Shown in pieces: positions 815 through 13,016 of a stretch of 13,431 nucleotides of DNA; position 1 is the first letter of the stretch; each line of letters opens with the position of its first letter. The position numbers were made by a program, and so were the translations under genes. Origin of the DNA: CBDUXZ01 sp965371325 [NCBI: uncultured bacterium] (lineage in GTDB: Bacteria; JAUYMQ01); NCBI GenBank assembly GCA_965371325.1, contig CBDUXZ010000016.1:1-13431 (forward strand). Reading direction: 5' to 3'. The notes below the pieces were generated by a model. The model was given only the letters and a program-made list of their open reading frames with translations. It ran no database searches and was not told the origin of the DNA.

Positions 815-1672
815 TCAGGCCGGACCTGCCCTTGAGAGTGCTCGCCGGAGAGCGCGGCGCATAACGTCGATCGGGGCCTGCTCTCCGGTCCAGAGTTCAA
901 AAGCTTCCGCGCCCTGGTGCAACAACATTCCCAGGCCGCCATGGGTCCGCAGTCCGATCCGCGACGCGGCAACAAGGAGCGGGGTGCGCATCGGCCTGTA
1001 GACGATGTCGCTTACAATCGCCGCTCCTGGAAGCTCCTTCAGCGGAAGACCGCGATGGGCCGTTCCCCCCATTCCTACTGCGGTCGCGTTGACCAGAAGA
1101 TCGGCCTCCACAAACGCGCGTGAAACATCCTCCCGGGAGAGTCCACCCCAGGCAATGTGCGATCCCCTGAACCCCCTCCCGAGACGGCGCGCAAGCGTGG
1201 ATGCCCGTCTGGAGGTTCGATTCAAAATCGTGAGGCGTGAAGCGCCACGGCTGAGTAATGCAACTGCTATGCCACGCGCCGCACCGCCGGACCCGAGCAT
1301 GACGACACGTTTCTTCCTCGGATCGAAGCCAAGATCTTCACCCAGGGCGGTAACGTATCCACTCCCGTCCGTGTTGTGACCCACCAGGCCCCGCGGCGTA
1401 CAAACGATCGTGTTAACGGCGCCTGTCAGCCGGGCTTCCCGGCTCGCACGATCAACAAGCCGCGTCGCGCGTTCCTTGTGCGGGATCGTCAGATTGATTC
1501 CCGCCCAGCCCATGGCCCGGATACCGCGCAAGGCGGCCCCGAGATCGGAGGGCCGCACGCGTGCCGGGATGTAAATCCAGTCGAGCCCCAGCGCGCGGAA
1601 AGCCGAGTTATGCATGACAGGCGAAAGGGTCTGGCCGATCGGGTTGCCAAGGATCCCGACAATTTTCGTCAT
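815..1672 (-). CDS. aroE: Shikimate dehydrogenase (NADP+)
   Basis: This 285-residue protein reduces 3-dehydroshikimate to shikimate, the fourth step of the chorismate pathway, in the cytoplasm. The N-terminal substrate domain opens with GNPIGQTLSP (9-18). The catalytic Lys is K66 in NLTIPHKE, GAVNT is at 84-88, and the catalytic Asp is D102 in NTDG. The Rossmann domain has GSGGAARG (127-134), then NRTSRR (151-156), the basic patch expected for NADP, and NATAVGM (195-201). The C-terminus has GGLGMLLHQGAEAFELWTG, with the substrate Gln at Q253. The first Ser of the SxS shikimate clamp is replaced by T15, while S17 is kept. Length is normal for the family. The start ATG has AAGGA nine bases upstream. 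It lies between ribF (172-bp gap) and pilB (54-bp gap). Confidence 0.96.
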   Translation of the reverse strand: MTKIVGILGNPIGQTLSPVMHNSAFRALGLDWIYIPARVRPSDLGAALRGIRAMGWAGINLTIPHKERATRLVDRASREARLTGAVNTIVCTPRGLVGHNTDGSGYVTALGEDLGFDPRKKRVVMLGSGGAARGIAVALLSRGASRLTILNRTSRRASTLARRLGRGFRGSHIAWGGLSREDVSRAFVEADLLVNATAVGMGGTAHRGLPLKELPGAAIVSDIVYRPMRTPLLVAASRIGLRTHGGLGMLLHQGAEAFELWTGEQAPIDVMRRALRRALSRAGPA

Positions 1673-10029: not shown

Positions 10030-10659
10030 TTACGCCTCGGAAGCCCCCTTGGGGGCGGGCTTGGAATCGGAGTTGCGGCCGGCATTCAAAGGCGTGCCGG
10101 CGTGCCGTAGAAAGACGACACGCGTGTCGCCGTAGCGCTTCTGCCGAAAAGTTTCGAGGCCCGCGGAATCCACCAGGACTTCCCGCGCCCCAAACTCGAT
10201 GACTACTACGCCTCCCGGCGCCAGGAGCCCCTCGGACACGAGAAGCGCCGCGGTTCCGGCCGCAATCGTCGAGCCGTAGGGCGGATCCAGGAAGGCAGCG
10301 TCGAAGGGACCCTCCCCGGCAGAACGTATCTTCGGGAGCGCGCTCCCAGCTTCGTCGACCAGCACCCTGGCCCGCTCCGTACACTCTGCGCGCCGCAGGT
10401 TCTCTCTCGTTACACGGGCCGCATCGGAGTTTTTCTCGATGAACAGGGCATGGGCTGCGCCCCGGGACAGAGCCTCGATGCCTAGGGCTCCCGTGCCGGC
10501 GAAGAGATCAATCACCCTCCCCCCGAACCCGCCCGGCATGGCGGCCTCGAGAACGTTGAAGATCGCCTCGCGAACCTTATCCGAAGTGGGCCGAATTCGG
10601 AGCCCCTTCGGAGGCCCCACGAGCTTCCTCCCACGCGCAGTTCCACCGACGATGCGCAC
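10030..10659 (-). CDS. rsmD: 16S rRNA (guanine966-N2)-methyltransferase
   Basis: 209 residues from a GTG start (10657-10659). Class I SAM-dependent methyltransferase that modifies G966 in helix 31 of 16S rRNA. The N-terminus RIVGGTARGRKL with RPTSDKVREAIFN (23-35) is diagnostic of RsmD. SAM motif I is DLFAGTGALGIEALSRG (51-67), and the catalytic motif is DPPY (125-128). After the core the protein carries about 25 extra residues of low-complexity tail (from RHAGTP), rich in Ser, Pro, Lys and Ala, with no evident function. The start has AGAGAAAG upstream. It is the first gene of the group, with its promoter in the 10686-10715 region, and is divergent from the dehydrogenase gene. Confidence 0.95.
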   Translation of the reverse strand: MRIVGGTARGRKLVGPPKGLRIRPTSDKVREAIFNVLEAAMPGGFGGRVIDLFAGTGALGIEALSRGAAHALFIEKNSDAARVTRENLRRAECTERARVLVDEAGSALPKIRSAGEGPFDAAFLDPPYGSTIAAGTAALLVSEGLLAPGGVVVIEFGAREVLVDSAGLETFRQKRYGDTRVVFLRHAGTPLNAGRNSDSKPAPKGASEA

Positions 10660-10784: not shown

Positions 10785-10860
10785 GCACGCGGCGCGGGAA
10801 GCAGGCGCCGGGAGCCGCGGAAGCGGTCATGGTCGCGTGGATGAAAACATTATACCAAGG

Positions 10861-10870
10861 GAAGGGGAGG
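10861..10870 (+). promoter_or_regulatory. Purine-rich SD deciding the dehydrogenase start
   Basis: GAAGGGGAGG ends three bases before ATG 10874. No comparable SD stands before the in-frame ATG at 10829, so the shorter start is preferred. Confidence 0.5.
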
Positions 10871-10873
10871 AAG

Positions 10874-11614
10874 ATGGAACTGGGGCTCAATGAAAAAGTT
10901 GCGCTTGTAACCGGAGGCGCTTCGGGGATCGGCAAGGCGACGGGGACGCTGCTCGCGCGGGAAGGCGCCCGCGCCGTGCTCATCGATCTCGATGCCGCGG
11001 CCGCCCAGAGTTCCGCGAAGGAGATCGGCGGCGAAGCAGCCGGTGTCGGCCTCGACATGACAGACTTTGACGAGGTGGCGCGTGTCTTCGCCGATATCCG
11101 GGAGCGCTACGGGCGGATCGACTGCCTCGTGAACGCCGCAGGCGTGCTCGTCGGCGGCTTCTTCATCGAATCTACGCCGGAGGCGTGGCAGCGCGAAATG
11201 GACGTCTGCCTCTACGGGGTCATGAACGCCTGCCGCGCCGCGCTTCCAGTAATGACGGAGCAGAAAGCCGGGAGGATCGTGAACATCGCAAGCGACGCGG
11301 CGAAAGTGGGAGAGAAACAAATGGCTTCCTACGCGGCGGCGAAGGGCGCGGTTGTTGCATTTTCGAAGTCAATTGCGAAAGAGCATGGCCGCAACGCCAT
11401 CAATGTGAACGTGGTCTGCCCGGGAACGACGAAGACCGCCATGACCTCTTTCCTCACACCCGAACTCGAGGCGAAGTGGGTTCGGACCTATCCTTTGCAG
11501 CGCCTGGGGGAGCCCGAGGATATCGCCGGGATGATCGTCTTCCTTCTCTCGGAGCGGGCGAGCTGGATTACGGGTCAGGCCATCAGCGTAAACGGTGGCT
11601 ATTCGATGTGCTAA
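10874..11614 (+). CDS. Short-chain dehydrogenase/reductase, BadH/FabG-like
   Basis: 246 residues, a classical SDR. The cofactor loop is TGGASGIG (13-20). D38 in LIDLD after the second strand points to NAD(H) rather than NADP(H). NAAG is at 87-90, and the catalytic residues are S140, Y153 and K157. The stretches GRIVNIASDAAKVG, FSKSIAKEH and INVNVVCPGTTKTAM are close to those I know from BadH-type 2-hydroxycyclohexanecarboxyl-CoA dehydrogenases. A hydroxyacyl-CoA or related hydroxy substrate is therefore plausible, but FabG-like 3-oxoacyl reduction cannot be excluded. The C-terminus (ITGQAISVNGGYSM) is standard. The start at 10874 fits the family length and the SD. ATG 10829 would add 15 residues. 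It is monocistronic with no pathway neighbours here. Confidence 0.88.
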   Translation: MELGLNEKVALVTGGASGIGKATGTLLAREGARAVLIDLDAAAAQSSAKEIGGEAAGVGLDMTDFDEVARVFADIRERYGRIDCLVNAAGVLVGGFFIESTPEAWQREMDVCLYGVMNACRAALPVMTEQKAGRIVNIASDAAKVGEKQMASYAAAKGAVVAFSKSIAKEHGRNAINVNVVCPGTTKTAMTSFLTPELEAKWVRTYPLQRLGEPEDIAGMIVFLLSERASWITGQAISVNGGYSMC

Positions 11615-11749
11615 TCCCGATCGCCGGACGCGCGGCAGAGAGGCGTGAAGGTGACGTTGCCCATTCAGAACGAAGCGGAATCCCGCGAATGAAACAATTC
11701 GGTGACGCCCGCCGCCGCCTCATGTCGGTCTGGCGGGGGCCCGGATAAC

Positions 11750-11777: not shown

Positions 11778-11957
11778 TGAGTCACCTGGCTCCCCGGAAG
11801 GTCCGCTCGAACGCCTCGCTGGCCCTGCCTGGCGGGCATGCCCCTGTTTCAAATCCGCACTCTAAAAAGCGTTAAGTCCCAAAATAAAAGGTATTTTCCC
11901 TGGGCGGGAGGACGTGACCCTTCTCCGTGTCATGCTCCCCCGGGCGAACCTCCCAAG

Positions 11958-11974
11958 TTGGCATCAGGCTTGCA
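11958..11974 (+). promoter_or_regulatory. Sigma-54 (RpoN) -24/-12 promoter upstream of the XRE regulator
   Basis: TTGGCA (11958-11963) and TTGCA (11970-11974) put the invariant GG (11960-11961) and GC (11972-11973) exactly ten bases apart, as RpoN requires. The only notable departure is T-C for the C-G that usually follows TGGCA. Transcription would start near 11985, leaving a leader of about 90 nt before the ATG at 12076. No competing -35/-10 pair is evident nearby. Confidence 0.6.
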
Positions 11975-11995
11975 TTCCCCCTACCTCAAGAGGCG

Positions 11996-12016
11996 GCAAC
12001 GGTTCCTTATCGTTGC
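11996..12016 (+). repeat. Small inverted repeat in the predicted leader of the XRE gene
   Basis: GCAACG (11996-12001) and CGTTGC (12011-12016) pair exactly around a 9-nt loop, about 10-30 nt downstream of the expected sigma-54 start. It may be an RNA hairpin or a downstream operator. Confidence 0.3.
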
Positions 12017-12075
12017 AAGAAGAGAAGAAGGCTCACCTCTTCCTGTGGGCCATGAGAGCGCTTTAGGAGACTCGG

Positions 12076-12336
12076 ATGGTGAACCCCAAACTCAACAGGA
12101 TGAAGAAGGCGCTTCCCACACGAATCGCCAAGGTTCGGGGGTCCCGCTCCCAGCGAAGGTTCGCGCGTGACCTGGGGGTATTTCAGCAGAACATCAATCG
12201 ATATGAGTCGGGAACCACCCCCCACACTGATTTTCTGATGACGCTCGGAGCGAAGGAGAGCGTCAGTATCGACTGGCTGTTGTTCGGGAAGGGCAGCATG
12301 AAGAACGGCCGGAAAAAGAGGAACGGAAGAGCCTGA
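12076..12336 (+). CDS. Small XRE/Cro-CI-type helix-turn-helix DNA-binding protein
   Basis: 86 residues. An HTH_3 domain spans about 15-72. The recognition region is SQRRFARDLGVFQQNINRYE (25-44), with the characteristic RYESG turn, then TDFLMTLGAKESVSIDWLLFGKG, the usual last helix of phage-repressor-like XRE proteins. There is no sensor or dimerisation domain beyond this. The C-terminus is a basic tail (KNGRKKRNGR). AGGAGA stands nine bases before the ATG. The target is unknown. The gene stands alone between a sigma-54-type promoter and a strong terminator, so it is probably its own transcription unit. It may regulate itself or the membrane and lipoprotein genes 300 bp downstream. Confidence 0.85.
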   Translation: MVNPKLNRMKKALPTRIAKVRGSRSQRRFARDLGVFQQNINRYESGTTPHTDFLMTLGAKESVSIDWLLFGKGSMKNGRKKRNGRA

Positions 12337-12351
12337 GTCAGCACATCGTCT

Positions 12352-12413
12352 CCCGGCAGGGTGCCCCGGTTTCCCCCCATCCCCCCCCGACGGAACCCCG
12401 GTACCCTGCCGGG
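12352..12413 (+). repeat. Large GC-rich stem-loop after the XRE gene
   Basis: CCCGGCAGGGT (12352-12362) pairs perfectly over 11 bp with ACCCTGCCGGG (12403-12413). Inside, CCGGTTTCC and GGAACCCCGG can pair further with two unpaired bases. The loop is a C-rich run. No U tract follows. It is followed 11 bp later by a true intrinsic terminator, so the two form a tandem 3' structure. Confidence 0.55.
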
Positions 12414-12424
12414 GATGGATCCCG

Positions 12425-12456
12425 AAAAGGCCTCCCCACAAGGGAGGCCTTTTTTT
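12425..12456 (+). terminator. Intrinsic terminator of the XRE gene
   Basis: AAAAGGCCTCCC (12425-12436) and GGGAGGCCTTTT (12442-12453) form a perfect 12-bp stem with a CACAA loop. A run of seven Ts begins at 12450. The A run on the other side would also allow termination on the minus strand. Confidence 0.9.
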
Positions 12457-12659
12457 CCCCGGGGGGAGAAAACGCACCTGAACTACCCTTTTTGAGAAAT
12501 TCGTTTCACACCCCCGCACGCCGTTTCCTTCTGTCTCCGCAGGGCTAACAGCTCCCCAACCGGAAAATCATCGTCCCAAAACGCCTTGAATTTCGCGGCA
12601 CTCCACCAGTACTTCGCAAAGCGCGGCTCCGACCGGATCACGCGGCATGGATATTGCTC

Positions 12660-13016
12660 ATGTCGGGATTACCCTTTTGCGAGAATTCCATGTTGATGGC
12701 CCTCAGCCTGGTGGTTATTCTATTGAACGTCGCGGACAATTACACGACGTTCATGTTCATCCACGCCACACAGGGACAGTATATTGTTGTGGAGGGGAAC
12801 CCGGTTATGCGGTTCCTCATCGGAACTCTCGGGCTCAAGGGGGCGGTGGTGCTCGAGATGGCTGCCCTGACATTCATCGCCACCTATATCGCGACAACGA
12901 ACCTCTTGGCCCGGAAAGTTCGTTTCTGGACGCTGGTTGTGCTGGGCTTGCTTCCGTTGTGGGCCGTGTTCAACAATATTCAGGTGGCGCTTTCTCTCGA
13001 TCTTCCGATCTTCTGA
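12660..13016 (+). CDS. Small three-helix membrane protein, DUF5658-like
   Basis: 118 residues from ATG 12660. Three hydrophobic helices are predicted, beginning at ALSLVVILLNVADNYTTFMF, AVVLEMAALTFIATYI and WTLVVLGLLPLWAVFNNIQ. The pattern LLNVADNYTT, then EGNPVMRFLI, a GxKG turn and FNNI at the end matches what I know of DUF5658, a family with no established function. The conserved Asp, NP and NN residues in or near membrane segments suggest a buried polar site. The start is uncertain: TTG 12654, ATG 12660, ATG 12690 and ATG 12696 are all in frame, none with a strong SD. It lies about 200 bp after the XRE terminator and 45 bp before the lipoprotein gene, probably co-transcribed with the latter. 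Confidence 0.7.
   Translation: MSGLPFCENSMLMALSLVVILLNVADNYTTFMFIHATQGQYIVVEGNPVMRFLIGTLGLKGAVVLEMAALTFIATYIATTNLLARKVRFWTLVVLGLLPLWAVFNNIQVALSLDLPIF

What the first reader, a model, noticed from the sequence alone, without database searches (positions are those of the whole stretch)
11958..12456. Sigma-54-type promoter driving a lone XRE regulator with its own terminator
A -24/-12 element with exact GG-N10-GC spacing precedes an 86-residue HTH protein that is closed off by a strong intrinsic terminator. XRE/CI-type repressors are usually transcribed from sigma-70 promoters. An RpoN-dependent one implies that an enhancer-binding activator switches on a repressor-like protein, a control layer I do not recognise. 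The promoter match and ORF are seen in the sequence; the regulatory logic is inferred.
Basis: partly seen in the sequence, partly recalled or inferred. Interest (0 to 1): 0.6.

Follow-up and report, generated by a model that had tools for sequence, protein, structure and literature searches.

The report
Conserved autoregulated repressor, lineage-specific sigma-54-type promoter
A small DNA-binding repressor that many uncultured bacteria keep at the same chromosomal place, next to the binding sites it probably uses on its own gene, here seems to have swapped an ordinary promoter for an activator-dependent (sigma-54-type) one.

Summary
The -24/-12-like site (GG 11960, GC 11972, exact N10, 10 of 11 consensus positions), the 86-aa HTH gene (12076-12336) and the terminator (12424-12456) are all there. 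The site is uncommon but not unique: 62 of 20,000 shuffles of the gap reach it, and an equal match lies inside aroE. The gene belongs to a single-domain 434-repressor-like family. In 67 of 70 testable relatives it is divergent from rsmD; in 41 of 68 a DUF5658 gene follows. A palindrome learned from relatives (GYGACAC-N6-GTGTCRC) has its two best matches in the 13.4-kb window (11689, 11914) inside the SDR-hth gap, so autoregulation is likely. Where relatives have this operator (40 of 72), 24 of 40 have a sigma-70-like promoter just upstream of it. The window has none there and instead carries the sigma-54 match, which 0 of 74 relatives have. Best reading: a conserved autorepressor with a lineage-specific promoter, probably but not surely sigma-54. 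An RpoN-driven XRE repressor is already published (XrpA, PMC11999139), so the logic has a precedent. The window's own genome was not available; rpoN, an activator and close relatives remain untested.

The parts
12076..12336 (+). hth: 86-aa single-domain 434-repressor-like (XRE/Cro-CI) regulator
   Evidence: ORF; Pfam Phage_CI_repr 1.9e-5; five relatives 59-70% identical; 434 repressor/Cro best in sequence profile and fold search
11958..11976 (+). sigma-54-type -24/-12 element (GG 11960-11961, GC 11972-11973); predicted start near 11985, leader about 91 nt
   Evidence: start position inferred from the -12 rule, not mapped
11914..11933 (.). predicted operator O2, GTGACCCTTCTCCGTGTCAT
   Evidence: 12.8 bits, second best in the whole window with a matrix that never saw the window; 8 of 230,240 background positions reach it
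11689..11708 (.). predicted operator O1, ATGAAACAATTCGGTGACGC
   Evidence: 16.7 bits, best in the whole window; 0 of 230,240 background positions and 1 of 5000 shuffles of the gap reach it
11892..11897 (+). TATTTT, possible relic of the family's sigma-70 -10, 16 nt before O2; -35 partner only 2 of 6 matches
12065..12069 (+). AGGAG, likely ribosome-binding site
   Evidence: read
12352..12413 (+). inverted repeat CCCGGCAGGGT(G/A)CC upstream of the terminator, function unknown
12424..12456 (+). intrinsic terminator (GAAAAGGCCTCCC-CACAA-GGGAGGCCTTTTT, T run to 12456)
12654..13016 (+). DUF5658-like small protein, conserved downstream neighbour
   Evidence: Pfam E 1e-4, 23.5 bits, just under the cut-off of 25.2; same place in 41 of 68 relatives
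10030..10659 (-). rsmD, the divergent neighbour of hth in relatives
   Evidence: Pfam Cons_hypoth95 4.6e-47 (that this is the RsmD family is recalled); 67 of 70 relatives
10829..11614 (+). SDR oxidoreductase that lies between rsmD and hth in the window
   Evidence: Pfam; no SDR match in any fetched relative locus

Best explanation
hth encodes a dimeric 434-repressor-type protein that binds GYGACAC-N6-GTGTCRC operators in front of its own gene and holds its own transcription down (operators shown as a conserved sequence; dimer, binding and repression inferred). The gene and its operators are old and keep their place beside rsmD. In relatives the promoter read through the operator is of sigma-70 type. 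In the window lineage an SDR gene lies between rsmD and hth, no good sigma-70 promoter is left at the operator, and RNA polymerase with RpoN most likely starts from the -24/-12 element at 11958-11976, so an unknown enhancer-binding protein switches the repressor on. O2 (about -71 to -52 from the predicted start) lies where a bound repressor could stop the enhancer loop from reaching the polymerase. The terminator keeps the transcript monocistronic.
For: Family and synteny: 5 strong relatives; 51 of 282 genomes of their phylum and 16 of 34 genomes picked for a high CoaBC match (11 of the 34 were already known non-carriers) carry it; 67 of 70 loci divergent from rsmD; median tblastn identity of hth 67.6% (75 loci) against 40.4% rsmD and 51.5% coaD. 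Operator: motif beats shuffled sets; held-out loci 18 of 55 against 4.6 expected; 17 loci never used in training: 11 against 1.7 expected; the window's top two sites both in the hth gap, 0 of 5000 shuffles match both. Sigma-70-like promoter upstream of the operator in 24 of 40 relatives against 5.1 in shuffles, not in the window. Sigma-54 site 10 of 11.
Against: The sigma-54 site is found in no relative (0 of 74). An equally good site in aroE shows that chance makes such matches, and at 3 mismatches the window holds only the chance number (41 against 39.8). The spacer lacks the T-rich stretch of the Geobacter consensus TTGGCACGGTTTTTGCT (abstract). A 7-of-12 sigma-70-like site exists at 12008, below the operator. 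No enhancer site, activator gene or rpoN could be shown; own genome not held. 32 of 72 relatives have no operator of 11 bits or more within 420 bp, and of the 17 untouched loci only 7 reach 11 bits. O1 is 387 bp from the start codon.
Confidence: 0.5

Rival explanations
1. The -24/-12 match is chance; hth is transcribed, as in relatives, from a housekeeping sigma-70 promoter (TATTTT at 11892-11897, 16 nt before O2, with a weak -35 helped by an activator; or the 7-of-12 site with -10 at 12008) and represses itself there.
For: TATTTT lies at the relatives' spacing to the operator (12-16 nt in 16 of the 24 relatives with such a promoter); a 7-of-12 site is at 12008; no relative has a sigma-54 match; equal decoy in aroE.
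Against: At O2 the -35 matches 2 of 6 and the whole site 6 of 12; the 12008 site is not at the operator and has a 3-of-6 class -35 at best by its score; a sigma-54 match as good is in 62 of 20,000 shuffles.
Confidence: 0.38
2. Both promoters work: a weak sigma-70 one that Hth represses and a sigma-54 one, outside the repressed span, for conditional high expression.
For: Both kinds of element are present on the two sides of O2.
Against: The sigma-70 element at O2 is poor; no direct evidence for two starts.
Confidence: 0.1
3. hth is a recently acquired phage repressor, and the region is a phage remnant.
For: CI-repressor Pfam hit; one IMG/VR virus contig carries a 60% identical copy.
Against: Fixed chromosomal address beside rsmD in 67 of 70 relatives and higher identity than rsmD, coaD and coaBC; the 15 window genes named by Pfam or structure matches are housekeeping, envelope or unknown ones except hth itself; the 14 records hit in the phage collection are all under 60% identical.
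Confidence: 0.02

Closest known systems
XrpA of Cereibacter sphaeroides (RpoN3/AprX-driven XRE repressor; PMC11999139: abstract, outline, found passages and sections 19 and 23 seen)
   Same: XRE-family repressor expressed from a sigma-54 promoter with conserved GG/GC, possibly monocistronic, divergent neighbour upstream
   Different: Alphaproteobacterial, other neighbours (hisN paralogue, quinone oxidoreductase); sigma-54 control shown by mutants and conserved in relatives; acts on ctrA and chpT; sequence similarity to Hth was not tested
Phage 434 repressor / 434 Cro
   Same: HTH sequence and fold; 434 Q17, Q28, Q29 align with invariant Hth Q26, Q37, Q38; two half sites separated by N6 (434 operator ACAA-N6-TTGT and its contacts are recalled)
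   Different: No C-terminal domain; half site reads ACAC, not ACAA, and 434 Q33 is R42 here; chromosomal gene at a fixed place, not prophage
RpoN regulon of Geobacter sulfurreducens (PMC2725144: abstract, section 7 part 1 of 2, sections 8 and 22 seen)
   Same: Consensus TTGGCACGGTTTTTGCT; the window keeps TTGGCA and TTGC at the same spacing
   Different: The operons in its Tables 2 and 3 are nitrogen, flagella, formate, transport and similar genes, no XRE repressor; the full list of 110 predicted promoters (additional files) was not seen
RstR / DicA repressors (NCBIfam)
   Same: HTH region resembles them (28.7 and 17 bits)
   Different: Far below their cut-offs (80 and 101 bits)

Membership tests
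sigma-54-dependent promoter | GG and GC with N10 between them | tested here: met
sigma-54-dependent promoter | close match to TGGCACN5TTGCW in a non-coding gap, gene in the right direction | tested here: met
   10 of 11; 62 of 20,000 shuffles
sigma-54-dependent promoter | element conserved in relatives | tested here: not met
sigma-54-dependent promoter | genome encodes RpoN | not testable with these tools
   own genome not held; 4 of 4 relatives' genomes have it
sigma-54-dependent promoter | enhancer-binding protein and upstream site | not tested
   no activator among the window genes named by Pfam or structure match; enhancer sites were not searched for
sigma-54-dependent promoter | RpoN-dependent transcript start 12 nt after GC | not testable with these tools
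   needs 5'-end mapping
434-type Cro/CI repressor | five-helix XRE HTH fold | tested here: met
   five helices, best model pLDDT 76 (the other four 53-59); best fold hits 3cro and 2or1, E about 0.03, none at 0.001; profile E 3e-8 to 434 repressor
434-type Cro/CI repressor | operator of two half sites with N6 spacer, near its own gene | tested here: met
   sequence only, binding not shown; 32 of 72 relatives lack a site of 11 bits
434-type Cro/CI repressor | C-terminal self-cleaving domain of CI proteins (recalled) | tested here: not met
   86 aa, only the HTH found; Cro lacks it too (recalled)
XrpA module | hisN paralogue and quinone oxidoreductase as neighbours | tested here: not met
   neighbours are SDR, rsmD and DUF5658

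The most novel reading that the evidence does not exclude
A core, autoregulated 434-type repressor, kept beside rsmD across distant lineages, has changed promoter class in one lineage: operators kept, sigma-70 promoter lost, sigma-54 promoter gained, so that an activator now turns on a repressor that can block its own enhancer loop from O2 and, with O1 225 bp away, perhaps by looping DNA itself.
Probability: 0.4. Interest if true: 0.6.

Novelty: new variant of a known kind. Interest (0 to 1): 0.45.

Why it matters
The repressor is more conserved than the enzymes next to it (median 67.6% against 40-52% for rsmD, coaD and coaBC), yet I found no described member: its best NCBIfam hits are far below cut-off, and one paper search (Myxococcota, rsmD, helix-turn-helix, conserved gene neighborhood; at least 3 of 4 terms) listed one paper, on antitoxins. 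PHROGs and PADLOC were not searched. A predicted operator makes its regulon testable. If the sigma-54 site is real, the locus is a natural case of promoter-class replacement at an orthologous, autoregulated gene. The bare logic 'RpoN drives an XRE repressor' is already known from XrpA.

Tried and rejected
Phage island: rejected, fixed synteny and no phage gene among the named window genes. Large regulon: pattern GYGACRYN6RYGTCRC with 1 mismatch in 30 of the carriers (4408 forward hits, reversed-pattern control 2738) and 30 non-carriers (3175; control 2549) was too loose to decide (sums added by hand). An exact GACAC-N6-GTGTC is in no hth upstream region (0 of 75 loci, window included), so the operator is degenerate. 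Rfam: 7 hits with E up to 1, all below gathering scores and all over the terminator. Plasmid and phage collections gave only matches below 60% (3 and 14 records). Finding the window's close kin: the highest identity among the listed CoaBC matches is 57% (259 of 377 genomes of the relatives' phylum matched; list cut off); PilB fits 5zfr and 5tsg (403 and 394 bits) better than 3jc8 (329 bits) (that the first two are Geobacter and the last Myxococcus is recalled), so the window is probably nearer Geobacter-type bacteria than its found relatives; not settled. Two searches of the relatives' phylum largely overlapped. The search of the Sodalis genome gave two weak hits and added nothing.

Limits of the counts: one search used 51 loci (near-duplicates left out by eye), two shuffled sets with fewer starts as control, and at width 14 its best motif was another one (cgcgAATTcgcg-like, 45.7 against 26.1 and 29.2). 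One search used 56 loci; searches used 72; truncated loci L051 and L063 were dropped from promoter counts, L064 repeats L005 and is among the 74. The seed palindrome was chosen after seeing the first set; only one search's 17 loci and the window are untouched data, and the 17 are kin of the training set. Loci are related, so counts are not independent events. The sigma-70 counts need A and T at -10 positions 2 and 6, spacers 16-18 and a place 8-39 nt before the operator. Ambiguous bases were scored as A (at random). DNA alignment one search used a wrongly placed L026 row and is not used.

Full report
What is there. The gap between an SDR gene (10829-11614) and an 86-codon HTH gene (12076-12336) holds TTGGCATCAGGCTTGCATT at 11958-11976, with GG and GC separated by exactly ten bases, 10 of 11 positions of TGGCACN5TTGCW. 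An AGGAG precedes the ATG by six bases. Downstream, a 13-pair hairpin with a T run (12424-12456) and a second hairpin (arms 12352-12365 and 12400-12413) together fold better than 200 of 200 shuffles (z -6.5). The promoter match is moderately unlikely by chance: 62 of 20,000 shuffles of the gap, or about 0.017 expected from its frequency in the loci fetched by then; an equally good match lies inside aroE, and at 3 mismatches the window holds the chance number of sites (41 against 39.8).

What the protein is. Pfam places it with phage CI repressor HTH domains (1.9e-5); NCBIfam has no fitting family. A profile of six family members finds 434 repressor (3e-8) and 434 Cro (3.7e-5) among solved structures, and the predicted fold (best pLDDT 76) finds 434 Cro and repressor first, though with weak E-values near 0.03. 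434 residues Q17, Q28 and Q29 align with invariant Q26, Q37 and Q38, and Q33 with invariant R42; that those residues read ACAA is recalled from the 434 literature (two searches found no paper holding all the terms).

The family has an address. One genome scan gave five strong relatives (65-75% identity in the best segment) and one weak one. A profile search found the gene in 51 of 282 genomes of their phylum and in 16 of 34 genomes picked for high CoaBC matches, all 16 among the 23 not drawn before. In 67 of 70 loci with enough sequence it is divergent from rsmD within 1 kb, and in 41 of 68 a DUF5658 gene follows on the same strand. Further out, loci L001-L004 share, as far as they reach, coaD, coaBC, nfeD, slipin, ribF and pilB with the window, in the same order and direction; aroE, the NUDIX gene and the aminotransferase were not matched there. 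Gene names rest on Pfam, PilB on structure-database matches. The window is odd in one respect: an SDR gene lies between rsmD and hth, and no fetched relative locus has it. Median tblastn identity to the window is 67.6% for hth (75 loci), 40.4% for rsmD (68), 51.5% for coaD (65), 50.7% for coaBC (12).

It has a predicted operator. A palindromic motif search on 51 relatives' upstream regions, window left out, gave GACAC-N6-GTGTC at width 16 (log-likelihood 66.7 against 25.9 and 26.5 for two shuffled sets), extended to GYGACAC-N6-GTGTCRC. At 8 of 10 or better it is in 29 of 56 upstream regions against 7.6 (maximum 14) in 100 shuffles, at 9 of 10 in 11 against 0.6 (maximum 4). Cross-validated, 18 of 55 held-out loci have their best site in the 320 bp before hth against 4.6 expected; in 17 loci fetched later, 11 against 1.7, 7 of them or 17 loci in all reaching 11 bits. 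In the window, a matrix from 72 relatives ranks 11689 (16.7 bits) first and 11914 (12.8 bits) second in all 13.4 kb; both are in the hth gap; 1 of 5000 shuffles of the gap reaches the first score and 0 reach both. The rsmD-SDR gap has nothing above 3.6 bits, so the sites went with hth, not with rsmD. The N6 spacing and ACA start resemble the 434 operator (recalled). Autoregulation is therefore the best-supported function; binding and repression are inferred. Against it: 32 of 72 relatives show no site of 11 bits within 420 bp, and the exact core palindrome is in none of 75 loci.

Promoter class. Among the 40 of 72 relatives with an operator of 11 bits or more, 24 have a sigma-70-like promoter (7 of 12 or better) shortly upstream against 5.1 in shuffles (maximum 11), 17 at 8 of 12 against 1.2 (maximum 6); the distance from -10 to operator clusters at 12-16 nt (16 loci) and 28-29 nt (6 loci). 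The window keeps a TATTTT 16 nt before the 11914 operator, but its -35 matches 2 of 6. The best sigma-70-like site of the gap is 7 of 12 (-10 at 12008, below the operator), none reaches 8. Conversely no relative has a sigma-54 match of 9 of 11 (0 of 74). So either the window lineage exchanged promoter class, or its sigma-54 match is chance and a poor sigma-70 promoter serves. I put the first, including mixed use, at about 0.6.

What could not be tested. The window's genome is not held, so rpoN and activators were not checked there; 4 of 4 relatives' genomes carry RpoN. PilB points to a Geobacter-like organism (organism names recalled); in G. sulfurreducens RpoN is essential (PMC2725144 abstract).

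Known precedent. In Cereibacter sphaeroides the XRE repressor XrpA is expressed by RpoN3 with activator AprX and represses ctrA and chpT; a strain with a change in the -12 GC has less XrpA (PMC11999139, abstract, passages and sections 19 and 23). In the Desulfovibrio vulgaris sigma-54 study (PMC4641369: abstract, outline, section 18 seen) the words Xre, helix-turn-helix and repressor do not occur in the main text. What seems new is the conserved rsmD-linked family, its predicted operator and the apparent promoter exchange.

Noticed in passing
window 12352-12413: A 14-bp inverted repeat (CCCGGCAGGGT[G/A]CC) with a C-rich loop sits between the hth stop and its terminator; function unknown; the two exact matches in the window are its own arms.
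   Followed up: partly
window 11996-12016: GCAACG-N9-CGTTGC dyad in the hth leader; some relatives have a TTGC-N-GCAA dyad over their -35.
   Followed up: no
L039 310-552: A virus contig (IMG/VR) carries a 60% identical copy of the repressor.
   Followed up: partly
G004 (L005, L065), G083 (L019, L062), G318 (L076, L085), G025 (L018, L044): Some genomes hold two copies; in the first three one copy is beside rsmD and one is not found beside it, in G025 both are.
   Followed up: no
window 10829-11614: SDR gene between rsmD and hth is absent from all fetched relative loci; possible insertion that split the divergent region.
   Followed up: partly
window 1259-1274: Equally good sigma-54-like match inside aroE, a decoy that calibrates chance.
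   Followed up: yes
L024, L025 upstream of hth: Perfect dyad TTTCCTATAGGAAA about 180-200 bp before hth in two related genomes, another possible operator.
   Followed up: no
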